Assembly: GCF_014644295.1 (NCBI RefSeq)
Contig: NZ_BMKK01000006.1
Span: 1 to 64,000, forward strand
Length of the DNA: 64,000 nt
From: Emticicia aquatilis
Lineage (GTDB): Bacteria; Bacteroidota; Bacteroidia; Cytophagales; Spirosomataceae
Direction: 5' to 3'
The stretch's first letter is position 1, and each line of letters begins with the position of its first letter. The translations under genes were made by a program, and so were the position numbers. The notes beneath the pieces are model-generated. The model was given only the letters and a program-made list of their open reading frames with translations, was not told the DNA's origin and did not search any database. Shown piece by piece: positions 5,094 through 61,513 of this stretch.

Positions 5094-5096
5094 AAT

Positions 5097-5726: not shown

Positions 5727-5832
5727 ATAATAGGAATACCTGCCCCCACAGGCATATTTTATATTTGTATCATACTCGGGGTAGTATGAGTTTAGCAAAA
5801 GGTATAAAAAACTATCAAAATTAAGTTTTTTC

Positions 5833-17462: not shown

Positions 17463-17535
17463 GGTGATGTAGCTCAGTTGGTAGAGCAAAGGACTGAAAA
17501 TCCTTGTGTCGGCGGTTCGATCCCGTCCATCACCA
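17463..17535 (+). tRNA. tRNA-Phe (GAA)
   Basis: 73 nt with full cloverleaf: acceptor GGTGATG/CATCACC, D arm GCTC..GAGC, anticodon stem AAGGA/TCCTT, loop CTGAAAA with anticodon GAA at 17496-17498, T arm GGCGG-TTCGATC-CCGTC and discriminator A. No CCA is encoded. Its 3' half is the integration target of the island. Confidence 0.98.
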
Positions 17536-17536
17536 C
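17492..17536 (+). repeat. Left attachment site (attL core)
   Basis: 45 bp from the anticodon stem to one base past the discriminator of tRNA-Phe, identical to 61469-61513. The tRNA remains intact at this end. Confidence 0.95.
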
Positions 17537-26186: not shown

Positions 26187-28940
26187 ATGATACGCATGAT
26201 TCAAAGCAGTTCAGCCGCTCACGCCAAAGCCTATTTCTCCGATGCCTTGTCAAAGTCAGATTATTATCTGGACGACCAAGAGTTGCATGGGTATATACAA
26301 GGACTCTTGGCTACTCGGTTAGGATTAGATGGGGATGCTACTAAAGACAAATTCTTTGCCCTGTGTGAAAATGTCAATCCTCTAACAGGTGAGCCTATGA
26401 CACCTCGAACAAAGGACGACCGCACGACAGGTTACGACATTAATTTTCACTGCCCAAAATCGGTATCTGTCCTCCATGCTTTGGCAAAAGATGAGCATAT
26501 TTTGAAAGCCTTTCAAGAGTGTGTCAATCAAACCATGCAGGATATTGAGCGAGATAGTAAAACCCGAATTCGCAAGGGCGGTCAATATGACGAACGAGAT
26601 ACAGCGGAATTACTGTGGGCGAACTTCATCCACCAAACGGCAAGACCTGTGGATGGGGCTTTACCAGACCCGCATCTTCATGCTCACTGTTTTGTCTTCA
26701 ATGCCACTTGGGATGAACATGAAAAGCAAATCAAGGCAGGGCAATTTCGAGACATTAAAAGAGATATGCCCTATTACCAAACCCGTTTTCATAAACGGCT
26801 ATCAGACCAACTGATTGAGTTAGGCTATCAGATACGCCAAACCGAAACCTCATTTGAGGTCAAAGGAGTACCTCAAAAAGTCATTGAATTATTCTCTAAA
26901 CGCACGGATGAAATTGGGCGTGTGGCCAAAGAAAAAGGAATTACAGATATTAAGGAACTGAGTGAGTTGGGGGCAAGAACTCGTTCAAAAAAACAAAAAG
27001 GCCATTCGATGAATGAGTTAAAGGCAGAATGGCGAAAACAAATCCATAAATTAGGAGAAGATAAAGACGGTGCAGGGCAACAAGTTGTGCGGTTTGCTCC
27101 TGATAAAGAAGCAAAAGAACTTCTCCCTAAGCACTGCGTTGATTATGCCTTACTACATGGTTTTGAACGAGCCTCTGTTTTACAAGACCGCCGTTTATTG
27201 GCGGCTGCCTATCGGCATAGTTTGGGTAATAACCATATTTCATTAGATAATATCACCCATAGCTTTAATGACGACAAACGCCTTATCCATGTGAAAGAAA
27301 AGGGTCGAATACTCACAACAACTAAACAAGTATTGCTTGAAGAAAAGCACATGGTTAGGCTTGCCCAACAAGGGCAGGGTAAGTTAAAGCCAATTTACAC
27401 AAAGCCTCCCGAACTCAAGCTGGAGGGACAACAAGCCGAAGCTATTAAACATGTATTGACTACGCCTCACCGTGTGTCAATTATTCGTGGGGCGGCAGGG
27501 TCTGGGAAGACCACGCTGATGCGTGAAGCCGTTTCATGGATAGAGAAGGCGGGTAAAACCGTTACGGTCGTAGCCCCTACTTCTGAGGCTTCTCGTGGCG
27601 TTTTGCGTCAAGAAGGCTTTGAAAATGCAGAAACCGTTGCCCAACTTTTGACGGATAAAAAAATGCAAGAGAATTTAACAAATCAAGTGCTTTGGGTAGA
27701 TGAGGCAGGTTTACTTGGTACAAAAGATATGACACAACTCCTTGAACTTGCTACACAGAAAAACGCTCGTCTGATTTTAGGAGGCGATACTCGACAGCAT
27801 TCAAGTGTCATTAGAGGTGATGCCTTGCGAATTCTTAACACGGTGGGTGGTATTAAAACGGCGGAAGTAAATAAAATTTACCGTCAACGCAATGAGCAAT
27901 ACCGATCGGCAGTAGAAGATTTATCTAAGGGTAGTGTTAGTAGTGCCTTTGAGAAATTGAATAATATGGGGTCAATCAAGACAATTGACCCGCAAAAACC
28001 CAACGAAGCATTAGTCAATGACTATGTAGCGGTTATTAAAGATAAAAAGACAGCATTGATAGTGTCCCCAACCCACCAGCAAAGCGATGAGGTAACTGAT
28101 ACTATACGCAGTAAACTAAAAACTGATGGCTTAATTGGTAAGAAAGAAATCTCGGCCTCTCGTCTGATTAATCAAAATTTGACGGAAGCTCAAAAAGGAG
28201 ATTGGCGAAATTTTAAAGAAGGGCAAGTCATTCAGTTTAACCAAAATATGCCAAAAATTAAGCGTGGCAGTATATGGACTGTCGAAAGTGCCTCTGAAAA
28301 TGGTATTATCATTCAAAATAATCAGCAACAATCTATGCTTTTACCCGTGCAAAAAAGTAGTGATTTTGACCTGTATCAAAAGAGTGTCATTCAATTAACC
28401 AAAGGCGATATAATCAGAATTACCCGTAATGGATTTGATACAGAGAAAAATCGGCTGAATAATAGTCAAATTTTAGAGGTTACATCTGTAAGTAAAAAGG
28501 GAGAGATTCACCTACGAAATACGGTTAGTAAAGCTGCTTACAAACTTAATCAAGATTATGGGCATCTTGCTCACGCTTATTGTGTAACCTCTTATGCTTC
28601 CCAAGGTAAGACGGTTGATGAAGTGTTTATCTCGCAACCCGCTTCCACTTTTCCAGCCACAGATGCCAAACAATTCTATGTTTCTGTCTCTCGTGGGCGT
28701 AATAATGCCCGAATTTATACGGATGACAAAAACCAGCTACTGGATTATGCGTCTGAGCTTGGGGATAGGAAATCGGCTATTGAACTGGTAAAGGGAAAAA
28801 GCCTTGTTCCAGAAATGATTCATCAACGCATTCGTGAAGAAAGAAATCAAGTTCTTACTCCATCACCACAAAAGGATAAAAGCAAAAACATACAACAATC
28901 TTCACCTATAAAAGATAATACGTATGAGCCACGGATTTAA
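26187..28940 (+). CDS. MobF-family relaxase with RecD-like helicase domain
   Basis: 917 residues. N-terminal relaxase (1-300): candidate catalytic Tyr residues in KSDYYLDDQELHGYIQG and the three-His metal motif PDPHLHAHCFVFN near 165-177. Middle and C-terminal superfamily 1 helicase: Walker A IRGAAGSGKTTLMREA near 437, Walker B VLWVDEAGLL near 510, and the late HAYCVTSYASQGKTVDEVF and YVSVSRGRNNARIY. Nicks oriT and unwinds the strand for transfer. An alternative start at 26196 drops three residues. The next gene overlaps the stop by 17 nt. Confidence 0.95.
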   Translation: MIRMIQSSSAAHAKAYFSDALSKSDYYLDDQELHGYIQGLLATRLGLDGDATKDKFFALCENVNPLTGEPMTPRTKDDRTTGYDINFHCPKSVSVLHALAKDEHILKAFQECVNQTMQDIERDSKTRIRKGGQYDERDTAELLWANFIHQTARPVDGALPDPHLHAHCFVFNATWDEHEKQIKAGQFRDIKRDMPYYQTRFHKRLSDQLIELGYQIRQTETSFEVKGVPQKVIELFSKRTDEIGRVAKEKGITDIKELSELGARTRSKKQKGHSMNELKAEWRKQIHKLGEDKDGAGQQVVRFAPDKEAKELLPKHCVDYALLHGFERASVLQDRRLLAAAYRHSLGNNHISLDNITHSFNDDKRLIHVKEKGRILTTTKQVLLEEKHMVRLAQQGQGKLKPIYTKPPELKLEGQQAEAIKHVLTTPHRVSIIRGAAGSGKTTLMREAVSWIEKAGKTVTVVAPTSEASRGVLRQEGFENAETVAQLLTDKKMQENLTNQVLWVDEAGLLGTKDMTQLLELATQKNARLILGGDTRQHSSVIRGDALRILNTVGGIKTAEVNKIYRQRNEQYRSAVEDLSKGSVSSAFEKLNNMGSIKTIDPQKPNEALVNDYVAVIKDKKTALIVSPTHQQSDEVTDTIRSKLKTDGLIGKKEISASRLINQNLTEAQKGDWRNFKEGQVIQFNQNMPKIKRGSIWTVESASENGIIIQNNQQQSMLLPVQKSSDFDLYQKSVIQLTKGDIIRITRNGFDTEKNRLNNSQILEVTSVSKKGEIHLRNTVSKAAYKLNQDYGHLAHAYCVTSYASQGKTVDEVFISQPASTFPATDAKQFYVSVSRGRNNARIYTDDKNQLLDYASELGDRKSAIELVKGKSLVPEMIHQRIREERNQVLTPSPQKDKSKNIQQSSPIKDNTYEPRI

Positions 28941-34883: not shown

Positions 34884-36821
34884 TTAGTTCAACTCAATCA
34901 CATTATCATTGCCAAACCATACTTTAGCTTTTGCTATTACCTGTGCGTTAGGATTATGAAAGAAAACCGCTAAATTCTCTTTGGCCCTTGTACAACAAAC
35001 ATAAAATATCTTTTGAGTTCTATCTAATACAGTTGGCGAGCCTGTTTCTAAGAAAAGGTTGCCGAAATTATAATTGTTCCAACCTCCATTATCAAGAATA
35101 ACTAATACATTATCAAATTCAGATCCTTTTGTTTTATGCTGTGTAGAAAACGGTGTTTGACCTTCCAAATATTCATATAGTTTTTGAAATTCACTAAACC
35201 TGACATTTTTAACACGATTATATAAATATTCTTTCTTCTCTTTAAAATTAACGAGCTTATCATTAATCATACATATACCCTTTTCGTTGGCATCAATAAT
35301 TATTTCTTCTATGGTTTTATCGCCAACATCTACAAGATTATCAATATTTTCTTTAAGAATTCTCTTGCTTGCGATACTTGTTATTTTAAAACGATAGTCT
35401 GTTGCCCTTAGAAACTCGTTGTACCTTTTACTTTTATACAGAGAAATATTATTTTGGATTTTAAACAAATGTTTTATCAAGTTATCTCTTTTTGAACCTT
35501 TCTTGTTTTCATCATCCTCGTCTTGCTTTTTATCATCAAGCAATTGGTCTTTATCAACATACATTTTGGAAAAATCAGAATATTTTAGAGATTTAGCATA
35601 ATTGTACAATTCGGTATTCCCATCAATAAAAACCTGCATTGTGTTTGTAGGGCGAACTGTGTTTAATTCTCTACCACCTTTTCCTTGCTGCAATGCTTCA
35701 ACTACTTCTCCAAATGTATTTTCAGAAAAGTCAGTAGCAATATTGTTTTCTTTAATATGCTTCTTAATTCTATCTTTATAACTTAATATCTGGTCTTTAT
35801 TATAAATATCCATCAAGGTTCTAAAACCCGCTTTGTCGGCTATTAAATTGTGAGTAAGATTAAGTTCTTTTGTTTGCTTTAAATTACTAAAATCCCAAGC
35901 ATGATTAGCTACCAAAAACTCTTCAACCTTTTTAATATTGCCATCAGTAGAATATAAGAATAGTACAGTGCCTTGCTTTACTACACCATTAAACATATTG
36001 GGTGCATTGGGATCTGTAGAAGGTTCTTGTGTGATGCCATCAGTCCGAAGTTTATTGGCTAAATCGATAACAAGCTGAGGATTTCTTCTATTTTGTTTCT
36101 TTGGAATTTCGTTTACAGTATCTGCATAGTCTCCTTTGTATTCATCTAAATTTCCAATCCCATCATCGTAAATAGATTGCATCGCATCACCAAAGAATCC
36201 AATAATATTTTTTCTTTCGCTTTTCTTGAAGTGAGTGAGAAAAATATCAATAACAGCTTTATTCGTATCTTGATATTCATCAATAAAAATAAACTGGTAT
36301 TTATGCTTTATTATACTGCTAAGTTTTGGATATTTTTCAAAAAGATAGTTTGCAACAATAAGTAACTCATCGTGAGAAATGATTCCTTCACGCAATCGTA
36401 AAAACTCTTTATATTGTATTCCGTCTATTAAAGTATTAAAATAGCTTTTGGGAATAGGATTTGCCTCATCAATTGAAATTCCACTAACATTCTCATTATT
36501 GGCTAACGAAATAATTGCTTCTTTAAGCTCCTTTTGAAAGTGCTTTATATTATCCCATAAAAAGTCGTGAATTGTAGATACATTAAGGTTCTTATGGTTT
36601 ACTCTTTCTTCAATTTCTTTTACTGCTGCATTGGTGTATGTCATACAGGCTACTTTTGCTGTTGGATTTTCAGCAATTACCTGTCGAATAACACTTACCA
36701 ACGAATAGGTTTTACCACTTCCTGCACCACCACTCAAAAGAAAGTTTCTTCCTTCGTCAATTAATTGAAGTATTTGCTGTACTTCGGGTTCTAAATTTGT
36801 ATTTAATCTTGCTTCAACCAT
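34884..36821 (-). CDS. gajB: UvrD/Rep-type helicase of a Gabija-like system
   Basis: 645 residues. Superfamily 1A helicase motifs in order: LLSGGAGSGKTYSLVSVIRQ (Walker A, about 32-52), ACMTYTNAAVKEIEERV (Ia), FIFIDEYQDTN (Walker B DEYQ), IGFFGDAMQSIYDDG (III), FSTQHKTKGSEFDNVLVI (V) and FYVCCTRAKENLAVFF (VI). Overlaps the OLD-type nuclease gene by 19 nt. In Gabija GajB senses DNA ends and nucleotide loss and activates GajA. It is longer than the typical ~500-residue GajB, so the assignment to Gabija rather than another class 2 OLD pair is an inference. Confidence 0.85.
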   Translation of the reverse strand: MVEARLNTNLEPEVQQILQLIDEGRNFLLSGGAGSGKTYSLVSVIRQVIAENPTAKVACMTYTNAAVKEIEERVNHKNLNVSTIHDFLWDNIKHFQKELKEAIISLANNENVSGISIDEANPIPKSYFNTLIDGIQYKEFLRLREGIISHDELLIVANYLFEKYPKLSSIIKHKYQFIFIDEYQDTNKAVIDIFLTHFKKSERKNIIGFFGDAMQSIYDDGIGNLDEYKGDYADTVNEIPKKQNRRNPQLVIDLANKLRTDGITQEPSTDPNAPNMFNGVVKQGTVLFLYSTDGNIKKVEEFLVANHAWDFSNLKQTKELNLTHNLIADKAGFRTLMDIYNKDQILSYKDRIKKHIKENNIATDFSENTFGEVVEALQQGKGGRELNTVRPTNTMQVFIDGNTELYNYAKSLKYSDFSKMYVDKDQLLDDKKQDEDDENKKGSKRDNLIKHLFKIQNNISLYKSKRYNEFLRATDYRFKITSIASKRILKENIDNLVDVGDKTIEEIIIDANEKGICMINDKLVNFKEKKEYLYNRVKNVRFSEFQKLYEYLEGQTPFSTQHKTKGSEFDNVLVILDNGGWNNYNFGNLFLETGSPTVLDRTQKIFYVCCTRAKENLAVFFHNPNAQVIAKAKVWFGNDNVIELN

Positions 36822-38884
36822 AATAAACCATTTTTGATATATGCAGGAATATTCCAGTTACTAAAGTCCTTATCGCTATGATATAGTATATCCAATGCGA
36901 AATGCGTTTTCTTTTTTATACACGAACCTGCTAATACATAAGCATTATTGGCAACTTCATCAAATAACTTTCTATTTTGTAGTCCCTGAAATTCATCTTT
37001 TTTACCGTTTATAAATGCACGGTTAATATGAATAAAAGCATCCTCGAAACTTCTTGCGTGATAGGCATTTTCTTCCTGTTGATAGCAAATGCAAACCGTA
37101 CAACTGCCAATAATAATTATCCTATTGCCAACAGGTAATGTTTTTAAGTCATTCCAAACAACTGTACTCAAAAAATAGTTAATTGCAGAATTGCTTGTTT
37201 TAGTACCTTCATCAACAGGACAAGCTCCCCAAACGTCTTGCCCTTTATCGTCTTGTTTTACAACTTTGATGGCATCAATATCAGTTAATATCAAAGACTT
37301 AATCCCTAAAAATTCTATAAATTTCTCAAAGATTTGTGAATATGCCCCGACTTCGATAATTGATATGTTTTGAGATAATAGTGGAAGAAAAGTGTCTTCT
37401 TTACCCTCTGCTTTTAGACGATCTGCTTCTTCTAAATCAACTTTTCGCATAAAAGTTGGTATTAATATTCTTTCCGTATCTCCCTCTATCAAAACAGCTT
37501 TATCGGCAAAGAAAATTTCAGCTCTACTGATAGTTAAATACTGTTTTAGAAATTGATATTGACTTGGGTCGGCATCATATTGTTTTCTCAAATCGGAAAG
37601 ATTTTTTGCAACAACATTATTCTTATTTTCTGCTTTCAAATATTTAATGTCATCAAAATCACTGTCTGCAACAATGTGTGATGAGTGTGTCGTAATTATA
37701 TATTGTAGGGGTCTATTTATTCCATCATCTCTCTTTATACCTTCGGCAAGTAATTTCTTAATATTTTTAATAAAGACATACTGCATTTGGGGGTGTGTAT
37801 GTGCTTCGGGTTCTTCTATGATGAGTAGATTTATATCTGCTGGCTTTTTGTCCTTATCCCGTTTGAAATCCTGAACAAGAATTTCAATTTCAAAAATCAT
37901 GCTTATAAGGTTCATATAACCTAAGCCATTATAATGTTCTGGCAACTTATGGTCATCGTGCGTATATATTACGGTGGTGTTTCCTTCAAGTAATTCCCGA
38001 TGTTGCAATGTTGAAATTATTGCGATGTCAGTATCATTCAGTTTTATTCCTCCAAAATCTTGGACTTTTTTAATTACATCGCTGAATAGGTCTTTGTATA
38101 TATCGCTTAATGTATTATCGGTTTCTGAAAGTTGATCTTTAAAGTTTTCAGTAGCTTGATTTTGGTCACTATTGTCTTCTTTCTTTTTGTGAAGACTGGA
38201 TGTTTGTTTAGATAGTGTGTTTTCTTTTTCTTTATTAGTTACATCTCTCCTTGCACTAATATATCTGAAATCAATTATATTTTTAATACTAATACCCTCT
38301 TTTTCGAGATCAATAAAGTTATTATTATTGATTGTCTCAGTAGCTATATCATACTCAAAAGACATCTTATAAATGTGAAAATATTTGCCTAACTCTTGCT
38401 TTAAGAATTCTTTCAATTCTCTTGGTTTGCTTTTCTTTTTATTAGCCACCTTTGTTATTTCACTTACGACAAAAGCAGCATAATCTGTTCTGATTTTCAG
38501 AAAATCACTATAGGCTAATGTATATTCAAACCCTAATACAATTTTATTGTTATTAGGGTCTAAATCCATCAATACTCTACTAACATTTGACAAATCATCT
38601 TTATCATTATATTCAATAAATATCTTTAGTTTAATGCCTTTTGGTGGAAATTCGTCAGGAACATCAAGGGCATTAATTAATCTTTCTAAATCGTTTTTAA
38701 AACCTATATTGAAGTCGTCGTAAGTAAACTTATTTTTCTCATTCAAGAATTTATCAAGAACTGAAAGAATTGAAGTTTTTCCTGTATTATTCTTTCCAAT
38801 AACTAAGGAAAGCTCTTCTTCAATATCAATTGAAAAATCTTTTAAAAGTCTAAAATTCTCTATTTCTATTTTATATATTCTCAT
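36803..38884 (-). CDS. gajA: OLD-family ATPase-TOPRIM nuclease of a Gabija-like system
   Basis: 693 residues. ABC-type ATPase: Walker A SLVIGKNNTGKTSILSVLDK (about 25-45), Walker B LLIIEEPEAHTHPQM and switch YIITTHSSHIVADS. C-terminal TOPRIM nuclease: KAVLIEGDTERILIPTF (Glu) and SLILTDIDAIKV (D-x-D). A charged insertion (about 215-260) separates the lobes. Members paired with a UvrD-type helicase are class 2 OLD proteins; the pair is the Gabija antiphage architecture. Longer than GajA of Bacillus (~580 residues). Confidence 0.88.
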   Translation of the reverse strand: MRIYKIEIENFRLLKDFSIDIEEELSLVIGKNNTGKTSILSVLDKFLNEKNKFTYDDFNIGFKNDLERLINALDVPDEFPPKGIKLKIFIEYNDKDDLSNVSRVLMDLDPNNNKIVLGFEYTLAYSDFLKIRTDYAAFVVSEITKVANKKKSKPRELKEFLKQELGKYFHIYKMSFEYDIATETINNNNFIDLEKEGISIKNIIDFRYISARRDVTNKEKENTLSKQTSSLHKKKEDNSDQNQATENFKDQLSETDNTLSDIYKDLFSDVIKKVQDFGGIKLNDTDIAIISTLQHRELLEGNTTVIYTHDDHKLPEHYNGLGYMNLISMIFEIEILVQDFKRDKDKKPADINLLIIEEPEAHTHPQMQYVFIKNIKKLLAEGIKRDDGINRPLQYIITTHSSHIVADSDFDDIKYLKAENKNNVVAKNLSDLRKQYDADPSQYQFLKQYLTISRAEIFFADKAVLIEGDTERILIPTFMRKVDLEEADRLKAEGKEDTFLPLLSQNISIIEVGAYSQIFEKFIEFLGIKSLILTDIDAIKVVKQDDKGQDVWGACPVDEGTKTSNSAINYFLSTVVWNDLKTLPVGNRIIIIGSCTVCICYQQEENAYHARSFEDAFIHINRAFINGKKDEFQGLQNRKLFDEVANNAYVLAGSCIKKKTHFALDILYHSDKDFSNWNIPAYIKNGLLWLKQD

Positions 38885-39197: not shown

Positions 39198-40235
39198 TTA
39201 CTTGTCCTTCTCTTTAGTTGCTATTTGGTTACGTGCTATTTCAATAGCATTTTGTAATTTTTGATGCAAAATATCCTTTGGTATTTGTTTTGTAATGTAC
39301 TCAGCTACTCTAATATCAGATTGTTCTATTTCGAGTAACTCAAGGTGTTCTTGATTTTTTTCTGCACACAAAATCAAGCCGATGGGTGGATTTTCGCCCT
39401 CCATCAATTCATATTTTTTCAGCCATTTCAAATACACTTCCATTTGTCCTTTATACGCTGCTTTAAACGCTCCCAATTTCAAGTCTATCGCAACCAATCG
39501 GCGTAAGCGTCTATGATAAAAAAGCAAATCAATATAATAATCGGTGTGATCAATTGTAATACGTTTTTGACGGGCTAAAAAAGCAAAATCCGAGCCTATT
39601 TCTATGATAAATGATTGTAGTTCTGCCAAAATAGAGGCTTCTAAGTCTTTTTCGGAATAAGTATCTTTCAGGTTCAAGAAGTCTAAAAAAATAGGGTCTC
39701 TAAAAACCAAGTCGGGGCTGGGCGATTCCCCTTTACTAAGCTGTATCAACTCTTGCTTGATAGTTTCTTCGGGTTTTCGGCTAATGGCCGTTCTTTCAAA
39801 AAGCATCGAATTAACTTTATCTTGGAGTGTTCTAACGCTCCAGCGTTCCAAACGGCACATCTCCATGTAAAACTGCCTTTGAAGGTCGTCTTTAAGATAA
39901 ATCAGTATGCGTAAATGTGTCCATGTGAATTGTCCACTCACTGCGTGGACAATTTGAATATCCTCAAAAATTTCGGCAAATTTGATAAAATTTAACAAGT
40001 TTGTTCGGTTAAATCCTTTGCCATACGCCAACGTCAATTCATCACTTAGGGATTTAATTACCTGCTTGCCGTATTCTGCTCGTTGGTCTTGCAGTATAGA
40101 TTGATTGATACGCTTGCCAATATGCCAAAAAAGCAAGGTCATTTCGGAATTAATCGAAACAGCTACTCGCTGTTTGGCTTGCTCAATCAAACTTTTTATA
40201 TCTATTAAAAGTGTATTTTTGCTTAGTTGTGTCAT
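39198..40235 (-). CDS. DUF1016/YhcG-family PDDEXK nuclease
   Basis: 345 residues, full length for the family. N-terminal helical domain: LLFWHIGKRINQSILQD, YGKGFNRTNLLNFIKFAEIF and FTWTHLRILIYL. Nuclease domain: ITIDHTDYYIDLLFYHRRLR then RLVAIDLKLGAFKAAYKGQM, where the usual E-x-K is D-L-K. YhcG-type proteins are linked to DNA repair and defence islands; target unknown. It is a different subfamily from the 586-residue relative at 8928. Confidence 0.88.
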   Translation of the reverse strand: MTQLSKNTLLIDIKSLIEQAKQRVAVSINSEMTLLFWHIGKRINQSILQDQRAEYGKQVIKSLSDELTLAYGKGFNRTNLLNFIKFAEIFEDIQIVHAVSGQFTWTHLRILIYLKDDLQRQFYMEMCRLERWSVRTLQDKVNSMLFERTAISRKPEETIKQELIQLSKGESPSPDLVFRDPIFLDFLNLKDTYSEKDLEASILAELQSFIIEIGSDFAFLARQKRITIDHTDYYIDLLFYHRRLRRLVAIDLKLGAFKAAYKGQMEVYLKWLKKYELMEGENPPIGLILCAEKNQEHLELLEIEQSDIRVAEYITKQIPKDILHQKLQNAIEIARNQIATKEKDK

Positions 40236-41065: not shown

Positions 41066-43096
41066 ATGAATCATTCTGAAGAATTTTTAGATAACTTAGA
41101 AGTTAACGGATTTAAAGATATCTATTACATTGGTACTCAACAAAGAGGAATTACAATTTTCAAACAACAAGTAAGAGCATTAAACCTTATCTATACATTA
41201 GAAAAAACCTCCAAAATACAAGAAGGATCGAGAATAGCAATAATTGGTGGCGGGATTGGAGGAGTTACCGCAAGTGCTGCGGCTCTTTCAATAGGATGCA
41301 AAGTTTATCTCTATGAAAATAAACCCATTCTTATGCATTTGCAAACTGGATGCAAAACCAGATGGGTGCACCCAAATATATATGATTGGCCAAGTCAGGG
41401 TTCTGAATTTCCTTATGCTGGATTACCTTTATTAAATTGGAAGGAAGGGTACTCATCAGATGTAGCACAAGAGATGCTAACACAATATGGATTAATAACG
41501 AAAAAACATGCAAATAATTATCGAGAATGTTTAGGCGTACGATTTGAGGATATTGATTTTTCAACAAAAAAAATTTTTCAGGAATATTCAACCAATAAAG
41601 ATCATATCAAATTTGACGCCGAATTTGATATCATCATTGTTGCTACAGGGTTTGGTATAGAAGGTGGGTTTGATAGAAATAGTTTATTGAATGATAGTAA
41701 TTCCTATTGGAGAAACGATGATCTTGATCAGCCTTACATAGGGAAAACAAATTCTTCTGAAAGAAAAATTATCATTTCAGGTACTGGTGATGGAGCATTA
41801 GTAGATCTTTTAAGGAGTACGTTAATCAATTTTCATCAAGGTCGTTTAATTTTTGATTTTTTCTCTAATTCTGTTGATATAGAAAACATTAAAGAACAGA
41901 TAAACAAAATAAAGGAAAATGCAGGCATTTATGAAGATACTCATTCTAATTGGTTATACAGAAAATTTGAAGAGTTACCCAATGAGCTGTTAATTCCATT
42001 AAAAGAATATATCCACAAACAAAAAAGACAAGACACTAAAGTAACTTTACTTGGTAGGCAGAGTAGTATTAGTGATATATTTTCAACCAAAAAAATGTCA
42101 ATTTTTAATGCATTTATAGTATATTTGTTACATACAACTGGTTGTTTTGACTATTATGGCGTTGCTAAAATATCTAAGAAAAAAGATAAAAAAATTAAAA
42201 TTGATTTTCTGAAAAATTACAAGGGATTAAGCTCTACAAGTCTCTCTTATGACGTTCTTATTATGAGACATGGGCCTGCTATAGCAATAACCGACTCTTT
42301 AAAGTCACTTGGTATAATTGACCTTAAATTCAAGGATAGTATTGATACTTCAAATCGGATTTGGGATGCAGGTTGGCCTTCAGATTATATTGATAAAGTA
42401 CATGGCACAGAATTTGTCCCCCCACTTACAAAGGCAATAGTAACTACATTTGTTGAAATTTTAAGTCAAACCTTATCATATTTTCATAAGGAAAGTAACC
42501 CTTCTTTTAGGGTGTCATTGAATAGATTCATAGAAATCAACAATAGTATTTTTTTTCAGCAATTATGTCGTTATGGTGGTACAATTAAATACGAATCTGA
42601 AAGTAATATAGGTCGTATTTTTAATGCCAAATTTGGATTAGTTGGGTACGCTGCGGCAATTAATGAAGCAGTATTGCTAAGGCGAAAAGGTGATTTTGAT
42701 AAAGCAGTGAGTTTAATGGATGTAGATAGTTTAAAGTCGAATCCAATTAGACCAAGTTTAAATTCAATGTTAGCTATTCCTATTTACTCATTAGACAGCG
42801 ATAATAACAAAAAAATCAACTGTGCGTTATATATAGATTCATCAGAAATAGATTTTTTTTCAGATAAAGTAATTGATTTAATTATTAACACTTGCCAAGG
42901 GTTTATAATTACTATTGACAAAATGGTAGTCAATAATGATATAAAGGTTGTCAAAAGTCAGATCAACGGCACAATTCCTGCTGGAAACAAGCATTCAGAA
43001 AAATTAGAGAGTATAAAAATTGGCGAGCAAATATCTTCTGGTTTAAAAGAAAAACTGTATTTTAATAAAATAACTTCACTGGATATATACGAGTAA
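41066..43096 (+). CDS. FAD/NAD(P)-binding oxidoreductase fused to a GAF-like domain
   Basis: 676 residues. Rossmann dinucleotide loop AIIGGGIGGVTASAA at about 58-72, second strand YLYENKPIL, and IIIVATGFGIEGG at 189-201. A second nucleotide-like loop IISGTGDGALVDLLR is at 236-250. Residues about 530-650 resemble a GAF sensor domain: GRIFNAKFGLVGYAAAINEA, then SMLAIPIYSLDSD and YIDSSEIDFFSDKVIDL. No family name comes to mind for the fusion. It is followed 4 bp later by a methyltransferase gene. Very AT-rich. Substrate and reaction unknown. Confidence 0.7.
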   Translation: MNHSEEFLDNLEVNGFKDIYYIGTQQRGITIFKQQVRALNLIYTLEKTSKIQEGSRIAIIGGGIGGVTASAAALSIGCKVYLYENKPILMHLQTGCKTRWVHPNIYDWPSQGSEFPYAGLPLLNWKEGYSSDVAQEMLTQYGLITKKHANNYRECLGVRFEDIDFSTKKIFQEYSTNKDHIKFDAEFDIIIVATGFGIEGGFDRNSLLNDSNSYWRNDDLDQPYIGKTNSSERKIIISGTGDGALVDLLRSTLINFHQGRLIFDFFSNSVDIENIKEQINKIKENAGIYEDTHSNWLYRKFEELPNELLIPLKEYIHKQKRQDTKVTLLGRQSSISDIFSTKKMSIFNAFIVYLLHTTGCFDYYGVAKISKKKDKKIKIDFLKNYKGLSSTSLSYDVLIMRHGPAIAITDSLKSLGIIDLKFKDSIDTSNRIWDAGWPSDYIDKVHGTEFVPPLTKAIVTTFVEILSQTLSYFHKESNPSFRVSLNRFIEINNSIFFQQLCRYGGTIKYESESNIGRIFNAKFGLVGYAAAINEAVLLRRKGDFDKAVSLMDVDSLKSNPIRPSLNSMLAIPIYSLDSDNNKKINCALYIDSSEIDFFSDKVIDLIINTCQGFIITIDKMVVNNDIKVVKSQINGTIPAGNKHSEKLESIKIGEQISSGLKEKLYFNKITSLDIYE

Positions 43097-43100
43097 AAAA

Positions 43101-43847
43101 ATGACATTATTAACTTATAGTTCCTCATTAATAAAAAAGCTTGTTAATTCAAATGGTCATTCATTAGAATATATTGATGGTTTTTACGTAGATAAAAATT
43201 TACATAGAAAGCCTTTGCCGTCGGTTATTTTCCATCATGGAAAACTTTATTATAGATATATGGACAGGATTTTCAGCCCTACACCAATAAAAAAGATGGA
43301 GGCTAAGCAATCTATGTTGATGTGTGAAATAAGGTTGAAATATTTTGATGAATTTGTGGATGATGCTTATAATCTAAAAGTTATAAATGAGTTTATTTCA
43401 TACATTCCTCCTAATAAGCATAGGTTAAATATATTAGATTTTGGCTGTGGAAATGGGAAGTACACCTTAGGACTAAAAAGTAGAGTTGAACAAAGTGAGG
43501 TATTTGGGGTCGATATTAGTATGAATGCTATTAAGTGTGCTGAAAAAAACTACCCAAATATATTTTGGTTTCATATCAATGATCAGACTCCATTGCCTTT
43601 CCAAGATGGATATTTTGATTTTATTTTTTCAAGCTTTGTTATGCATTTTAATATATCTAAATTCTTCATCTGTGAATTAAACCGTATTCTTGCAAAAAAT
43701 GGGAAATTTATTTTCAATATTTATAATGAGAAATATTTCTCTAACGAACTATTTCAACATATGGAGAAATCAGGGTTTAGAGTTGATGAAATTAAACCAT
43801 CGTTTCAAACAAATCAATCATTTTACATGGTGAAAAAAAATAAATAA
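43101..43847 (+). CDS. Class I SAM-dependent methyltransferase
   Basis: 248 residues. SAM-binding motif I NILDFGCGNGKYTLGLK near 110-126, acidic loop GVDISMNAIKCAEKN, motif at PFQDGYFDFIFSSFVMHFN and post-motif ELNRILAKNGKFIFNIYNEK. The N-terminal 100 residues are specific. The family methylates small molecules or proteins; no target is evident. Four bases after the FAD/GAF gene, so one operon. Confidence 0.85.
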   Translation: MTLLTYSSSLIKKLVNSNGHSLEYIDGFYVDKNLHRKPLPSVIFHHGKLYYRYMDRIFSPTPIKKMEAKQSMLMCEIRLKYFDEFVDDAYNLKVINEFISYIPPNKHRLNILDFGCGNGKYTLGLKSRVEQSEVFGVDISMNAIKCAEKNYPNIFWFHINDQTPLPFQDGYFDFIFSSFVMHFNISKFFICELNRILAKNGKFIFNIYNEKYFSNELFQHMEKSGFRVDEIKPSFQTNQSFYMVKKNK

Positions 43848-44112: not shown

Positions 44113-44592
44113 TTAGTTATCTTCACTGTGTATGTGCCGAGAAAACCATTCCAGATTTCGTTCAAAACTAAACTTGTTATCATAAATATCTCGGCAACTT
44201 ACTTTCAAAGTGATTGGGGTGAGTTGCTTTTTAATATCTTCAATTTCTTCTGGAGAATTGTTCTCTGTATTTTTATCGAATATTACGAAATAAGCATTGG
44301 GTAGAATTACCTTTTTATCTATACCTTTCAATGAAATGTGCCAATAAGATTTGGGGGCTAACTTTAGGCATTCGCTGATAGTTTTGTATGTAATGCCATC
44401 TTTGATAAAAACCACGTTCTTAATAATTAGTGGCCCCAAACCATTATTTTGGATATGAACATAGATGTGTGTTTTGCGGTCGCCGACATCAATCTGGCCT
44501 AATGGCTTGAGTGATTTTTCGTTGTGTAATCGTTGGAGATATAATTGGTAAAAAGTAGCCAGTAATGCTAATAATGAAATGATAATTGCCAA
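44113..44592 (-). CDS. Membrane-anchored protein of the radical SAM locus
   Basis: 159 residues beginning MAIIISLLALLATFYQLYLQ, a single N-terminal membrane helix, using TTG as start (only ORF start available after a stop at 44623). The outer part is beta-rich: KTHIYVHIQNNGLGPLIIKN and PNAYFVIFDKNTE. It lies 30 bp behind the radical SAM gene in the same direction. A fragment of its 3' end is duplicated at 40645. Possibly export or immunity for the peptide; unknown. Confidence 0.6.
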   Translation of the reverse strand: MAIIISLLALLATFYQLYLQRLHNEKSLKPLGQIDVGDRKTHIYVHIQNNGLGPLIIKNVVFIKDGITYKTISECLKLAPKSYWHISLKGIDKKVILPNAYFVIFDKNTENNSPEEIEDIKKQLTPITLKVSCRDIYDNKFSFERNLEWFSRHIHSEDN

Positions 44593-44622: not shown

Positions 44623-45996
44623 TTATGTCGCTATCATCTTATAATCTTGGAGTAATTTCAAGCGTTCTCTTGCTTGAAGTTCGTAAATCAATGGAATAAA
44701 CTTATGATAAATAGTACATTGTGGGTCTTTGCCGTTAACTCTATATACAGGACATCCGCTGGTGCAAACTGCTTTGTATTTACATAGGGAACAATCGGTT
44801 GATTTCATATCTTCGTAGTGGCTACCTTGCTCAATCATATTAACTAAGTCCCTATCTTCATCAAAAATAGAAAAGGCAGGTTGATTGGCCTCACCAAAGT
44901 GAACATGGCAATAGTTCAATGTGCCATCTACATAAATAGCACCACCCGAAAACCCCGAAGTACAGGTTTGAAAACCTAACTCATTGGGTTTAAGGTCGCA
45001 GAATTGGTGTCGATTAGAGAAAGCCCAACCCGTTTGAATGGCATCTTGCATGATGGCGTAAGATTCTGACAGATATTTTTCGAGTAGTTGAGCATCAACG
45101 GCTTCTCCCTTAACAATGGAATATCTAAATGGCACATCTAAAGCAATTAAATAGTGGGTTAAGCTGGGTAAACCTTCCAAGTTATGATTACCCACTACTG
45201 TATTGACTGATACTGGAATATTATTGGCTATCAGTTTCCGAAGGTTTTCATCAATCACTTTGAAAGAGCCTAAGCCATTTCGGAACTTCCTTGCGGTATC
45301 ATTATGCTGCTCCAACCCATCAAGCGATACGCCAAAACGGATGTCATTAGCTTTTGAGAATGTCAAAATATCTTCGTTTAGGATTGTTAGGTTGGTAATA
45401 AACGATACTATAAGCTTACAGCCTAAGTCTTTTAATATTGTCTTTGCCTCAACGATAAATCCTTTCCAAAACTTAAATTGTCCTAATGGTTCTCCACCCG
45501 CCAACCTTAATTTGATACTGGTTATTTTTCTACGATTAACCGTTTCAACCAACTTGTTTAGTAATTGCGTTTGCGTTTCTGCCAACATTCCGTTGGTTGT
45601 ATTCAGCGTTGAAATGTAGCAATAGCCACAGGTAAGGTTACATTTATTGGTAGTATGAATCCAAAAATTCAACGATTGGGGTGTGTTGGGTCTTTTGGGT
45701 TTTGTAAAACTATGGTCGAATTTGATGATTTCTGTTTCAGCGAGTATGTTTAGGAATCCTTCTAAAACGTTTGGCTGTATTGATAGTTTTTCACAAAGTG
45801 TGGCTATGCTACTTTGGTTGTCAATAGCTGTGAGTATATCAAACTGAGCCTTATTCAGAATTCGCAATGAATTTGGATAGGCACAGTTGACAGCGTAAAA
45901 ATATCTTTCATCAATTGGTTTTACCAAAAGGTGAGGGGCTTTGATAGGTTTCAACGTTATCTTGATTTGAGGTAGAACTATAGCCTGTGCAATCAC
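44623..45996 (-). CDS. Radical SAM/SPASM peptide maturase
   Basis: 457 residues. The N-terminal 90 residues resemble a RiPP recognition element (HLLVKPIDERYFYAVNCAYP, SLRILNKAQFDIL). Radical SAM cluster Cys-x3-Cys-x2-Cys in NKCNLTCGYCYIST at C119, C123, C126. SPASM-type Cys cluster near the end in DCSLCKYKAVCTSGCPVYR, giving auxiliary Fe-S sites. Such enzymes install crosslinks or thioethers in small peptides. The GTG start at 45996 falls 86 bp inside the precursor-like gene; no ATG lies before the RRE. Operon: recombinase, precursor, maturase, membrane protein. Confidence 0.88.
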   Translation of the reverse strand: MIAQAIVLPQIKITLKPIKAPHLLVKPIDERYFYAVNCAYPNSLRILNKAQFDILTAIDNQSSIATLCEKLSIQPNVLEGFLNILAETEIIKFDHSFTKPKRPNTPQSLNFWIHTTNKCNLTCGYCYISTLNTTNGMLAETQTQLLNKLVETVNRRKITSIKLRLAGGEPLGQFKFWKGFIVEAKTILKDLGCKLIVSFITNLTILNEDILTFSKANDIRFGVSLDGLEQHNDTARKFRNGLGSFKVIDENLRKLIANNIPVSVNTVVGNHNLEGLPSLTHYLIALDVPFRYSIVKGEAVDAQLLEKYLSESYAIMQDAIQTGWAFSNRHQFCDLKPNELGFQTCTSGFSGGAIYVDGTLNYCHVHFGEANQPAFSIFDEDRDLVNMIEQGSHYEDMKSTDCSLCKYKAVCTSGCPVYRVNGKDPQCTIYHKFIPLIYELQARERLKLLQDYKMIAT

Positions 45997-46093
45997 AGTC
46001 GCTGTTAGGCGATAAATTAATTAGGGTGCTTTTGCCTGTCAATTTTGTTAGAATTGAGGAATCATCGAATAAGATGTCATTTTCATTTGCCAT
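45911..46093 (-). CDS. Candidate RiPP precursor peptide, 60 residues
   Basis: ATG at 46093: MANENDILFDDSSILTKLTG and on. The N-terminal half would be the leader (acidic, ends near LINLSPN), the C-terminal half a core with DCDCTGYSSTSNQDN and PSPFGKTN. Directly upstream of, and overlapping out of frame with, the radical SAM gene. The TTG at 46165 would extend it 24 residues, but the inner ATG gives a more precursor-like protein. Precursor identity is inferred from position. Confidence 0.65.
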   Translation of the reverse strand: MANENDILFDDSSILTKLTGKSTLINLSPNSDCDCTGYSSTSNQDNVETYQSPSPFGKTN

Positions 46094-46119
46094 GATAAAT
46101 AGAATTTTTAGGTGTATGT

Positions 46120-46758
46120 TTATTTTAAACGATTCATGAGATTGCCAACTGTACTTGGATGCCAACGACCTAAGCCTCTAAAAGTAGGAACGCCTTGTTT
46201 GTTGAGTTCTTGAGAAACTGCCCGCACGGTTGAAATTCCTTGATGTTTAAGCCGCTTGAGGAGAGGGGATAACCGTTGGGCAAATTCTTCGGCAGCTTTT
46301 TTATTAGCTTCTGAGAGTTTCTTGCCGTTTTTACCAAGCACAACACCTCGTCTTTTGGCCGCATCTAAAGCGTCTTTTGTGGTTTCGCTAATTCTTTGTC
46401 TTTGGTCTTCTGCTACTGCGGCCAGAATATGCAGGGTAAATCGGTTGGCGTGGGGATTATCTGTAACGATAATTTCGACGTTTGATTTAACTATTTTGGC
46501 GATTTGTTCAACGTCTCTTCCCAATCTGTCAAGCCGTGCTACTACTAAAACGCTGTGATTTTTCTTGCATAGTTCAAGTGCTTGTAATAGCCCAATTCTG
46601 CATCTACGGGTTGACTTAACCTCCACAACTTCGCTGGTTACGTCATAATCGTTGAGCCTACAATAGTTTTTGACAGCCAATTGTTGAGCTTCTAAGCCCA
46701 ACCCACTCTTACCTTGTCTGTTAGTCGAAACACGATAGTATGCAACTGCTTGTTTCAT
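46120..46758 (-). CDS. Small serine recombinase (resolvase/invertase)
   Basis: 212 residues. Catalytic domain: AVAYYRVSTNRQGKSGLGLE with Ser nucleophile in YRVSTNRQ, VLVVARLDRLGRDVEQIAKI, and ILAAVAEDQRQRISETTKDA. A short C-terminal helix-turn-helix follows (AVSQELNKQGVPTFRGLGRW then HPSTVGNLMN). Stops 26 bp before the RiPP-like precursor. Dyad sites with TAAACGAT lie just upstream. It could move or invert the module. Confidence 0.92.
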   Translation of the reverse strand: MKQAVAYYRVSTNRQGKSGLGLEAQQLAVKNYCRLNDYDVTSEVVEVKSTRRCRIGLLQALELCKKNHSVLVVARLDRLGRDVEQIAKIVKSNVEIIVTDNPHANRFTLHILAAVAEDQRQRISETTKDALDAAKRRGVVLGKNGKKLSEANKKAAEEFAQRLSPLLKRLKHQGISTVRAVSQELNKQGVPTFRGLGRWHPSTVGNLMNRLK

Positions 46759-47091: not shown

Positions 47092-47520
47092 CTATATAGT
47101 TAAAATATATTCTAATTTATGAGTCAAACTTTCAATATCTTTGTTCTGCCACTCTTTTTCTCTTACAATATTCAGTGTTTTTATTGCCGCTGAAATAATA
47201 GTGGTTATAAATTCTTCATATTCAATTTGTTCATCTAAAATATTTTTGTTTCGATTATAGCCTTTAAAGAAATAAAGATTTCCAACTCTATCAATAGTAA
47301 ATTTTAGTGGACCATCCATAAATAAAAAACTACCGTTGTCGCAATTACTTGTTTTCATTTTTATTATCTCGTCCAGCCAAAAACTTAAAACTACGACTAC
47401 AAAGTCATTCCAATCTTTTTCAGGAAAAAACTTTTTGTTTACTTCAAAATAAACACCACTCGTAATACTACCGAATGATGTTTTTGAAAATTCACCCACA
47501 CTTATCTGTAAAATTATCAT
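47092..47520 (-). CDS. Hypothetical protein, third gene behind the Rhs toxin
   Basis: 142 residues: MIILQISVGEFSKTSFGSIT, later GPLKFTIDRVGNLYFFKGYN and a helical C-terminus. No signal peptide. The reading resembles small single-domain immunity-type proteins but no family was recognised. Ten bases downstream of the 122-residue gene. Confidence 0.55.
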   Translation of the reverse strand: MIILQISVGEFSKTSFGSITSGVYFEVNKKFFPEKDWNDFVVVVLSFWLDEIIKMKTSNCDNGSFLFMDGPLKFTIDRVGNLYFFKGYNRNKNILDEQIEYEEFITTIISAAIKTLNIVREKEWQNKDIESLTHKLEYILTI

Positions 47521-47530
47521 TTGAAGCTTC

Positions 47531-47899: not shown

Positions 47900-47900
47900 A

Positions 47901-56858: not shown

Positions 56859-56914
56859 GTTTTCTTGTTCGTAAGTTTCGGATTAATAGTTTAAAATTGT
56901 CTGATGTCATAGTT

Positions 56915-60102: not shown

Positions 60103-61329
60103 TTACAACTTATTTTTCTCAGGTTGAGTATTTAGCACTTTATCCAAAGCATCATCGGCTTGTTGGGTTGTAAAGTTTGATTGATAGCCCATCGTGGTAA
60201 TAATACTGCTATGACGATAAAGTTTTTGTAAAATTTGTACGGGAATCTTTTCATTTGCCATTTGGGCAAATGAATGACGTGCTATGTGCATCGTTAATTT
60301 TTTATCTATTTCTGCTGCTGGTGCAACTTGTGTTTTAAGACATTTATCTAATGCACTTGTTTTAAACGCAATCGTTCGTTGAGTAACGAATTTATTATCA
60401 AGATTTACACCCTTTAATTCTGGAAATACAAAATCGTCCTTATTCTCTTTGAAAGCTTCATATTGTTTAAGAATAGTATCAGCTTTGTCAGGGATTTTTA
60501 AAGAGCCTACCTTTTGATTTTTACCCATAGAATAGTGTAAACGGTCGTTTTGAAAATCAGACCAACGTAATCGTAAAACATCACTTATTCTAACACCTGC
60601 AAAATAATACGAAAAAAGAAAAAGATTACGAGCATGATTGGCTGCACCTGATAGTTCAACATTTTCAAGTCTTTCTATTTCTTCGGCATTTAGCCCCACT
60701 TTAGTGCTTTCTGGGAACTTTATTTTCATTTTCCCTTTGCCAAACGGGTAGTATTTTTCATCTACTACACCTTCTTTGATAGCAAAGCTGAAAATAGATC
60801 GCATCACTACGATATGGTTTATAGCCGACCTTTCGGATAAATTAAGTTTAGACTTAACATGGTTTTGAAACCGTTCTAAAAGCGAAACAGTTATATCTTG
60901 AAATGCAATATCTTGTTTTATAAACTCTTTAAAGTGTTTTACTCTTGGTTTATCAGATGTATATTGATTATATTTGCCTGCTTCTTTCAAGCGTTGTAGG
61001 TATAACTCGGCTTGAGGAAAGAATGTTGAAGCGGCGGACGGCTTGATTTTTTGCTTTACCGATTGAGACGAAACATAATTTCTTTGTGTTTCAAGCTCCA
61101 ATGAGTGGTCATTGGCTTCTGATAACTTTTTGAGAATGTAGTTATTGAGACGAACAGAATTAGGGTGAGATTTTTTAACTCGTTGTTTAACTTCATCCCA
61201 ATCGTCTTCGTTAAGATTGTAGCCAAGATGAATAAAAGATGTTTTTCTATCTTTGGTGATACGCAAAGCTAAAGGGAATGTCCCTTCTTTATTTTTCTTT
61301 TTACGAAGAACAAGTTTTACATTTGCCAT
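60103..61329 (-). CDS. Tyrosine integrase of the tRNA-Phe island
   Basis: 408 residues from MANVKLVLRKKKNKEGTFPL (codons up to 61368 are open but not family-like and include the arm sites). Bacteroidota-type integrase: N-terminal arm-binding domain, SAM-like core-binding domain (SAASTFFPQAELYLQRLKEA), catalytic domain with Arg in SYYFAGVRISDVLRLRW, His/Arg in LTMHIARHSFAQMANEK and Tyr in TTMGYQSNFTTQ. Located 140 bp from attR with GGTACAAC repeats directly upstream of its start; it is the prime driver of integration in tRNA-Phe. Confidence 0.95.
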   Translation of the reverse strand: MANVKLVLRKKKNKEGTFPLALRITKDRKTSFIHLGYNLNEDDWDEVKQRVKKSHPNSVRLNNYILKKLSEANDHSLELETQRNYVSSQSVKQKIKPSAASTFFPQAELYLQRLKEAGKYNQYTSDKPRVKHFKEFIKQDIAFQDITVSLLERFQNHVKSKLNLSERSAINHIVVMRSIFSFAIKEGVVDEKYYPFGKGKMKIKFPESTKVGLNAEEIERLENVELSGAANHARNLFLFSYYFAGVRISDVLRLRWSDFQNDRLHYSMGKNQKVGSLKIPDKADTILKQYEAFKENKDDFVFPELKGVNLDNKFVTQRTIAFKTSALDKCLKTQVAPAAEIDKKLTMHIARHSFAQMANEKIPVQILQKLYRHSSIITTMGYQSNFTTQQADDALDKVLNTQPEKNKL

Positions 61330-61335
61330 GATATG

Positions 61336-61366
61336 GGTACAACTTTTGGTACAACATAGGTACAAC
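61336..61366 (+). repeat. Putative integrase arm sites, right end
   Basis: GGTACAAC at 61336-61343, 61348-61355 and 61359-61366, direct, spaced 12 and 11 bp. Same motif at the left end (17586-17604). They sit upstream of the integrase start, so integrase could also repress its own gene. Confidence 0.65.
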
Positions 61367-61468
61367 AATTAAAGGTTTAACGTGGTACTTGGTGTATTTA
61401 TATGAGTCAAATATAAGAAAAATTAGCCAAAACAGACCATTTCGCACCATATCAAACCAAAAAATAAA

Positions 61469-61513
61469 GACTGAAAATCCTTGTGTCGGCGGTTCGATCC
61501 CGTCCATCACCAC
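61469..61513 (+). repeat. Right attachment site (attR core)
   Basis: 45-bp exact copy of 17492-17536: the 3' part of tRNA-Phe from the anticodon stem to one base beyond the discriminator. Confidence 0.95.

What the first reader, a model, noticed from the sequence alone, without database searches (positions are those of the whole stretch)
41066..43847. Undescribed-looking two-gene module: FAD oxidoreductase-GAF fusion plus methyltransferase
Seen: 676-residue protein with FAD/NAD loops (GGGIGG, VATGFG, GTGDGALVDLLR) and a C-terminal GAF-like domain, 4 bp before a SAM methyltransferase, within a defence island between a YhcG nuclease and a RiPP locus. I know no named system with this pair. A GAF sensor on a redox enzyme with a modifying partner would suit a signal-triggered metabolic defence or a small-molecule pathway.
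Basis: inference. Interest (0 to 1): 0.7.

Follow-up and report, generated by a model that had tools for sequence, protein, structure and literature searches.

The report
Flavin-enzyme/GAF-sensor protein in defence island
A mobile DNA element carries a protein that joins a flavin enzyme, of a kind bacteria use as the killing part of at least one anti-virus system, to a small-molecule sensor domain; it looks like a so far unnamed, sensor-gated version of a known bacterial immune weapon.

Summary
ORF A (41066-43096, 676 aa) is an FAD/NAD(P) double-Rossmann enzyme fused to a real GAF domain. ORF B (43101-43847) is a class I SAM methyltransferase, 4 bp downstream. Both lie in a 44-kb element integrated at tRNA-Phe, with an exact 45-bp att repeat and an empty site in one congener, beside Gabija and YhcG genes.

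Related domains elsewhere precede Lamassu SMC partners, NB-ARC/TPR or NACHT/HEAT modules, or GAF. The GAF-associated proteins form one supported clade of 20 rows in my tree, from three named phyla, the window genome and a viral-collection contig. DUF3850 follows 14 of 15 fused relatives tested; 8 of 15 also have a P-loop kinase and a NUDIX gene. The window protein and its nearest relative lack DUF3850 and have methyltransferase neighbours, but these two are only distantly alike.

Best reading: a GAF-gated flavin effector causing growth arrest or abortive infection. It works like Lamassu's flavin effector but is not a Lamassu system: different C-terminus, no SMC partner found next to it. No function was tested.

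The parts
41066..43096 (+). ORF A: flavin (FMO/double-Rossmann) - GAF fusion, 676 aa
   Evidence: ORF; Pyr_redox_2; PADLOC LmuA 4.9e-71 over residues 4-406; GAF model and Foldseek
41072..42292 (+). FMO-like effector domain, residues 3-409 of ORF A
   Evidence: hmmsearch with my FMO profile, which includes the window sequence, 3.3e-133
42410..43090 (+). GAF domain and C-terminal tail, residues 449-675 of ORF A
   Evidence: alignments A5/A6; AF2 pTM 0.79; Foldseek PDE6/fRMsr/NreA
43101..43847 (+). ORF B: class I SAM-dependent methyltransferase, 248 aa
   Evidence: Methyltransf_11 9e-18; 33% identical, including a YYRYMD stretch, to a Vibrio plasmid methyltransferase
40644..40759 (.). upstream copy of a 116-nt direct repeat, apparent remnant of gene 44113-44592
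   Evidence: the repeat finder D1, 86% identical
44132..44247 (.). downstream copy of the 116-nt repeat flanking the ORF A+B pair
17492..17536 (.). att site, 3' end of the tRNA-Phe gene
   Evidence: 45-bp exact repeat; tRNA
61469..61513 (.). second att copy, other end of the 44-kb element
   Evidence: empty site in congener L075
34884..36821 (-). GajB (Gabija), neighbouring defence gene
   Evidence: PADLOC 2.1e-241
36803..38884 (-). GajA (Gabija), neighbouring defence gene
   Evidence: PADLOC 9e-285
39198..40235 (-). YhcG-like PD-(D/E)XK nuclease (PADLOC PDC-S02)
26187..28940 (+). TrwC relaxase of the mobile element
   Evidence: Pfam TrwC 1.9e-62
60103..61368 (-). tyrosine integrase next to the right att copy
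   Evidence: Phage_integrase 1.8e-16

Best explanation
ORF A is a self-contained immune effector. The GAF domain is held off until it binds a small molecule (nucleotide-like is my guess) or senses a redox change during phage or plasmid invasion. It then switches on the attached flavin enzyme, which uses NAD(P)H and O2 either to oxidise a vital metabolite or to make peroxide, so the cell stops growing before the invader spreads. ORF B would be an accessory that makes, erases or tunes the signal. Shown: domain make-up, shared effector domain, one GAF-type clade, island location, recurrent partner genes in the larger branch. Inferred: gating, ligand, chemistry, toxicity, and any role of ORF B.
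For: The LmuA model matches ORF A and 8 of 8 other FMO-domain proteins scanned. The same domain precedes Lamassu LmuC/LmuB (phmmer LmuB hits in L007, L008, L009, L046, L047, L050), NB-ARC/TPR (L024, L026, L065; weaker in L031) and NACHT/HEAT (L030, NACHT just under its cut-off). This is the swapping expected of an effector placed behind different switches. The GAF fold is supported. GAF-associated rows form one clade of 20 (99/96), apart from the Lamassu clade (100/98). Four loci have FMO and GAF as adjacent genes (L006, L018, L020, L025), which ties the two parts together functionally. DUF3850 follows 14 of 15 fused loci tested, with kinase and NUDIX in 8 of 15. Neighbours of 19 GAF loci include type IIG R-M, ZacC, LmuB, DrmMI, integrase and phage portal genes (134 ORFs). 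Two contigs of the viral collection carry the fusion (L032, L033). The window copy lies in a mobile island with Gabija and has no match in 6 of 6 congeners.
Against: No defence or toxicity was tested. The neighbour scan had no random control; at most 31 of 134 neighbours matched any PADLOC model at 1e-15, and some loci sit among ordinary genes (ABC transporters and ACC deaminase at L004; a tRNA-synthetase-family gene at L012). The full-length model is poor (pLDDT 62.8, pTM 0.40), so active site and inter-domain contact are not modelled reliably. DUF3850 was not found in the four split loci (the L025 contig ends inside the GAF gene). Ligand and reaction are unknown. ORF B is not conserved with the family.
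Confidence: 0.55

Rival explanations
1. Toxin-antitoxin-like pair: ORF A is a toxic flavin enzyme and ORF B (like DUF3850/kinase/NUDIX elsewhere) is its neutraliser, detoxifying the product or modifying the enzyme; activation comes from loss of the partner rather than from a GAF ligand.
For: ORF B is 4 bp downstream. The pair lies between two partial copies of one small gene, as if inserted together. An ORF B relative on a Vibrio plasmid starts 1 bp after another gene, whose protein has no Pfam match. Kinase and NUDIX genes accompany 8 of 15 fused loci.
Against: No single small partner runs through the family: DUF3850 is missing from the window, L011 and the split loci. All 20 rows of the clade carry GAF, fused or adjacent, which a plain toxin would not need.
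Confidence: 0.15
2. Small-molecule (secondary metabolite) module: a flavin oxygenase and a methyltransferase tailor a metabolite, perhaps the product of the neighbouring radical SAM locus, with GAF as a feedback sensor.
For: Oxygenase plus methyltransferase is a common tailoring pair (recalled); a radical SAM/SPASM-like gene lies 0.8 kb downstream on the other strand.
Against: No ORF in the relatives' loci searched matches the window's radical SAM protein at E 0.01. In those ORFs an HMM of three methyltransferases (ORF B, L043, L011) finds only its own members L043 and L011 at E 0.1. The enzyme domain is the LmuA effector domain.
Confidence: 0.12
3. GAF acts as a redox or peroxide sensor in a stress-response oxidoreductase unrelated to phage defence; island location reflects general gene traffic.
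For: fRMsr, a redox enzyme with GAF fold, is among the closest folds, and a nearly invariant Cys (C501 of ORF A) sits in the GAF domain.
Against: Patchy distribution, as for defence genes: 5 of 349, 2 of 179, 7 of 174 and 1 of 246 genomes have the FMO domain at all, centre genomes included, and 0 of 6 congeners have ORF A. The effector domain is shared with Lamassu and NLR-like proteins.
Confidence: 0.12

Closest known systems
Lamassu (ABC-3C) systems with a flavin-type LmuA effector (PADLOC PDLC03858; 'Lamassu-FMO' is a recalled label)
   Same: N-terminal ~400 residues of ORF A are homologous to the LmuA N-terminus (4.9e-71), with shared invariant residues in the glycine and aromatic motifs.
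   Different: C-terminus is GAF, not the LmuA C-terminal region; no SMC-like LmuB or LmuC found next to it; separate clade.
FMO-NB-ARC/TPR and FMO-NACHT/HEAT (NLR-like) proteins found here in Myxococcota and Methylobacterium
   Same: Same N-terminal enzyme domain placed before a signalling module.
   Different: The signalling module is a STAND-type NTPase with repeats, not GAF. I saw no report of these among my search listings.
GAF-domain proteins (PDE6/PDE5 cGMP-binding GAFs, NreA, fRMsr)
   Same: Fold of the ORF A C-terminus.
   Different: Sequence identity about 12-19%; ligand unknown; attached to a flavin enzyme.
Pepper Bs3 flavin monooxygenase (PMC8375990; search listing with title and start of abstract only)
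   Same: A flavin monooxygenase that triggers immune cell death and makes H2O2 in vitro: functional analogy only.
   Different: A plant gene switched on by transcription; no homology tested.

Membership tests
Lamassu (ABC-3C) defence system | LmuA-type N-terminal effector domain | tested here: met
   PADLOC LmuA 4.9e-71, residues 4-406
Lamassu (ABC-3C) defence system | LmuA C-terminal region (match over the whole 827-position model) | tested here: not met
   ORF A's match ends at model position 405, while L007 and L008 match to 825 and 822
Lamassu (ABC-3C) defence system | SMC-like LmuB (and usually LmuC) beside LmuA | tested here: not met
   Of eight window ORFs scanned around and including the pair, none shows LmuB or LmuC in the rows listed (only the best 25 rows are listed for GajA, GajB and YhcG; the Cap4/569-aa genes at 55149-57976 were not scanned with PADLOC). 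In relatives, phmmer with L007's LmuB/LmuC hits only the Lamassu loci L007, L008, L009, L046, L047, L050. Against: among 134 neighbours of 19 GAF loci PADLOC finds one ORF matching LmuB (8.7e-118) and one matching a different LmuA model (2e-53); the call does not say which locus. I think they are the separate gene set at L005 13873-17499, by reading the sequence.
GAF domain | GAF fold | tested here: met
   AF2 pTM 0.79 and Foldseek to GAF-containing chains, best 8.7e-6; Pfam GAF in 3 of 15 members
GAF domain | binds a small-molecule ligand | not testable with these tools
   No ligand experiment; no pocket mapping was done
FMO-GAF + DUF3850 (+kinase, NUDIX) family described here | FMO and GAF domains, fused or adjacent, in one clade | tested here: met
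   20-row clade 99/96 including the window
FMO-GAF + DUF3850 (+kinase, NUDIX) family described here | DUF3850 gene directly downstream | tested here: not met
   No DUF3850 in the window (best tblastn E 0.45); 14 of 15 fused relatives tested have it, L011 does not
Anti-phage defence system | protects cells from phage | not testable with these tools
   Needs phage challenge

The most novel reading that the evidence does not exclude
FMO-GAF is an unrecognised family of one-protein immune receptors: a GAF domain directly reads an infection-linked small molecule and gates a flavin-enzyme effector, without the SMC or STAND machinery that drives the same effector elsewhere. Partner sets (DUF3850/kinase/NUDIX in most members, a methyltransferase in the window branch) make, edit or erase the signal.
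Probability: 0.4. Interest if true: 0.78.

Novelty: new variant of a known kind. Interest (0 to 1): 0.56.

Why it matters
If right, the same flavin effector is wired to at least three different kinds of switch (SMC complexes, STAND-type NTPases, GAF). That points to a common toxic reaction whose chemistry is, as far as I know, undetermined. The GAF version is the smallest and most tractable form for finding both the reaction and the triggering molecule. It would also add GAF domains to the receptors used in bacterial immunity.

Tried and rejected
A single-sequence search in 395 genomes of the phylum found only the own copy, the phage collection gave no match, and a single-sequence viral scan gave none. 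Plasmid tblastn and profiles from distant relatives were needed. A viral scan with the window-L011 pair found only the contig of L032 again. ORF B: no relative at 1e-15 in 148 genomes of the order beyond the own copy and one 16-residue match in the viral collection, which I ignore. Its Vibrio relative has no match in phages or viral contigs. The 458-aa Vibrio protein is found in plasmids only in the same two records. The 360-aa ORF after the L011 fusion (4827-5906) has no Pfam or PADLOC match; I set it aside as probably a false-frame ORF (my judgement). My notebook first says 13 of 15 loci for DUF3850; the recount gives 14 of 15. One eLife paper (PMC7159879) was searched for passages and gave nothing on this domain.

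Idea that ORF B is a conserved partner: rejected as stated. A methyltransferase recurs only beside L011 (26% over about 100 residues), so chance is possible. Idea that this is a Lamassu: rejected (different C-terminus, no LmuB/LmuC found next to it). Rows left out of the tree: L028, L032 and L045, which have the same or nearly the same scores as L019, L023 and L021; L027 (fragment); L064 (same length and scores as L031). The two neighbour scans had no control set, so I claim no enrichment. The full-length structure model is too weak for active-site statements. In the whole-genome searches only a few first-look candidates per genome were scored, so the tallies are lower bounds.
Full report
WHAT IS THERE. 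ORF A (41066-43096, +, 676 aa) and ORF B (43101-43847, +, 248 aa) are open throughout, with four bases between them. Pfam gives Pyr_redox_2 over residues 56-196 of ORF A (6.6e-10) and Methyltransf_11 in ORF B (9e-18). No Pfam family matches the C-terminus of ORF A itself, so I tested the 'GAF-like' claim by structure. An AlphaFold2 model of the last 228 residues, built from an alignment of 15 sequences, has pLDDT 75.7 and pTM 0.79. Its best Foldseek matches in the PDB are the phosphodiesterase PDE6 (8.7e-6), the GAF-fold enzyme fRMsr (1.5e-4) and NreA (3.7e-4); several long-chain alignments have large rmsd, and TM-scores against isolated GAF targets are about 0.5-0.6. Pfam GAF matches 3 of 15 family members, best 5.2e-4. 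I take the C-terminus to be a GAF domain. The full-length model is weak (pLDDT 62.8, pTM 0.40) and I draw nothing about the active site from it.

WHERE IT SITS. The window region 17.49-61.51 kb is an integrated element. The 3' end of the tRNA-Phe gene (17492-17536) is repeated exactly, 45 bp, at 61469-61513. In congener G1655 (locus L075) the tRNA synthetase gene of window 61668-63971 (class I), a tRNA-Phe and the orthologue of window gene 15856-17199 follow each other within 2.9 kb, with no match to any other window ORF tested in between. The other three congeners fetched (L076-L078) hold the synthetase but otherwise gave one weak hit, so they do not show the empty site. The element carries a TrwC relaxase, an ArdC homologue, two tyrosine integrases, a Cap4 nuclease domain protein and two DNA methyltransferase genes, Gabija GajA/GajB and a YhcG nuclease. 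ORF A has no match at 1e-20 in 6 of 6 congeners or in any other genome of its family searched (1 of 101 positive, the own genome). ORF A and B have G+C of 31.0 and 28.2%, like GajA and GajB (30.7, 31.3), against 39-42% for four reference genes, of which two (731-1930, 10713-12206) lie outside the element and two (23698-25203 and the relaxase) inside it. The pair lies between two partial copies, 116 nt and 86% alike, of the small gene at 44113-44592, as if inserted beside it or into it.

THE ENZYME HALF IS A KNOWN EFFECTOR MODULE. Residues 4-406 match PADLOC LmuA PDLC03858 with E 4.9e-71. In true Lamassu loci the same model matches almost end to end (L007, L008), with LmuC and an SMC-like LmuB following. 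A review lists 'double-Rossmann dehydrogenase' among LmuA N-terminal effectors and describes the C-terminus as variable and possibly a docking station (PMC10586767, passages read). That this is the same domain is my inference; the paper I recall as the primary classification was not held. Profile searches found the domain in few genomes, centre genomes included: 2 of 291 (order; A3, 1e-10), then 5 of 349, 2 of 179, 7 of 174 and 1 of 246 (A7, 1e-25). What follows the domain varies: the Lamassu C-terminus, NB-ARC plus TPR (L024, L026, L065; in L031 NB-ARC is weak, 0.0058), NACHT plus HEAT (L030), a P-loop domain (L070), and several I could not name (L037, L066-L069, L071).

THE GAF BRANCH IS A FAMILY OF ITS OWN. 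A scan of GTDB contigs with a three-sequence profile gave 21 loci. In one search, 13 of these are FMO-GAF fusions and three have FMO and GAF as adjacent genes (L018, L020, L025; L006 from plasmids is a fourth); the other five are NLR-like proteins or a fragment. In a tree of 42 FMO domains all 20 GAF-associated rows form one clade (UFBoot 99 / SH-aLRT 96). The window and L011 (Botrimarina, Planctomycetota) are a supported pair (100/97), the four split rows form one group (100/97), and the six Lamassu rows plus L010 form another clade (100/98). Branches are long, the window row has unusual composition, and the tree should not be read finely. Hosts are Planctomycetota, Actinomycetota and Pseudomonadota, the unnamed window genome (probably Bacteroidota, a guess, not told), and two contigs of the viral collection (L032, L033), of which L032 encodes a protein with the same scores as L023.

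PARTNER GENES. Of 15 fused loci tested, 14 have DUF3850 just downstream (all but L011), and 8 have in addition a P-loop kinase and a NUDIX gene on the opposite strand; the four split loci gave no DUF3850 hit, though the L025 contig ends inside its GAF gene. L032 and L033 were fetched later and not tested. DUF3850 is described as PUA-like, typically linked to RNA recognition (PMC12704722, passages read). The window has no DUF3850; its ORF B is a methyltransferase. L011, the closest relative and the one fused relative without DUF3850, has a methyltransferase gene (L011 1883-2590, Methyltransf_11 7.7e-18) immediately upstream in divergent orientation, but it shares only 26% identity with ORF B over about 100 residues. 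An HMM of three methyltransferases (ORF B, L043, L011) finds, among the ORFs of the loci used, only its own members L043 and L011 at E 0.1. A closer ORF B relative (33%, sharing a YYRYMD stretch) lies on two Vibrio plasmids. In the one whose region I fetched it starts 1 bp after a gene for a 458-residue protein without Pfam match and with hydrophobic stretches near its C-terminus (read by eye), with a recombinase gene on one side and UvrD-helicase and MvaI/BcnI restriction genes on the other. So ORF B's kind can sit behind different partner genes on mobile DNA. These few cases do not prove a module.

SURROUNDINGS OF RELATIVES. I scanned 134 neighbouring ORFs from 19 GAF loci (of 148 listed; 13 kinase/NUDIX ORFs and one ORF overlapping the L017 DUF3850 region were dropped). 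PADLOC matches at 1e-15 include type IIG restriction enzymes, ZacC, LmuB, a different LmuA model, DrmMI, HNH, Vsr and dCTPase, at most 31 ORFs in all (28 families, 25 shown). Pfam matches include integrases, phage portal, TniB and resolvase, but also transporters, histidinol dehydrogenase and a tRNA synthetase family (72 families, 25 shown). There was no random control, so I claim 'often mobile or defence context', not enrichment. No biosynthetic operon was apparent among the families shown, and the window's radical SAM protein has no match at E 0.01 in these loci.

HOW IT MOST LIKELY WORKS. An enzyme domain that is repeatedly placed in front of different switches, in immune-type loci, is best read as the effector; GAF is then the switch. 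Conserved polar residues (R482, R487, Q498, Q499, Y503, R517) and a nearly invariant C501 in the GAF domain fit a ligand pocket or a redox switch. The kinase and NUDIX partners in the large branch, kinds of enzyme that handle nucleotides, make a nucleotide-like ligand a fair guess. The flavin enzyme would use NAD(P)H and oxygen and arrest or kill the cell. All but the conserved residues in this paragraph is inference.

COMPARISON AND NOVELTY. It works like the effector of flavin-type Lamassu but fails two of the three Lamassu tests made here (other C-terminus; no LmuB or LmuC found next to it). I found no description of FMO-GAF fusions in the listings of my paper searches. Those searches are by words in open-licence papers only, so a description elsewhere is possible. 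I rate it a new variant of a known kind.

Noticed in passing
window 17492-61513: Complete 44-kb element integrated in tRNA-Phe with exact 45-bp att repeats, a TrwC relaxase, ArdC, two tyrosine integrases and recognised defence genes (Gabija, YhcG/PDC-S02); the site is empty in one congener.
   Followed up: yes
window 48316-54765: 2149-residue protein that by eye looks secreted and RHS/YD-repeat-like, with small ORFs just downstream (47092-48314), like a polymorphic toxin with immunity genes; no family search was made.
   Followed up: no
window 55149-57976: Cap4 nuclease domain protein (56915-57976, Cap4_nuclease 1.2e-37) next to a 569-residue protein without Pfam match at 1e-5: a possible further defence pair.
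   Followed up: partly
window 44623-46165: Radical SAM/SPASM-like protein (GTG start) with a small Cys-containing ORF upstream: a possible peptide-modification locus, below the cut-offs of all NCBIfam models shown.
   Followed up: partly
L030, L024, L026, L031, L065: The same flavin domain fused to NACHT/HEAT or NB-ARC/TPR (weak NB-ARC in L031), that is, NLR-like proteins with a flavin effector; L049 groups with L065 in the tree, and L070 has a P-loop domain only.
   Followed up: partly
L043 5593-7666 (Vibrio plasmid): 458-residue protein with hydrophobic C-terminal stretches followed after 1 bp by an ORF B-like methyltransferase, between recombinase and restriction genes.
   Followed up: partly
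L037 6864-8981: A genome of the same order has the flavin domain with a different, unnamed C-terminal domain, near genes that by eye resemble an ABC-3C set.
   Followed up: partly
GAF-type proteins, C-terminal tail (window 43060-43093): Short conserved tail after the GAF domain (L/F-N-F/L-D/E-x-S/T-D/E-F/L-like in most fused members, alignment A3), perhaps a docking peptide; weak in the window.
   Followed up: no
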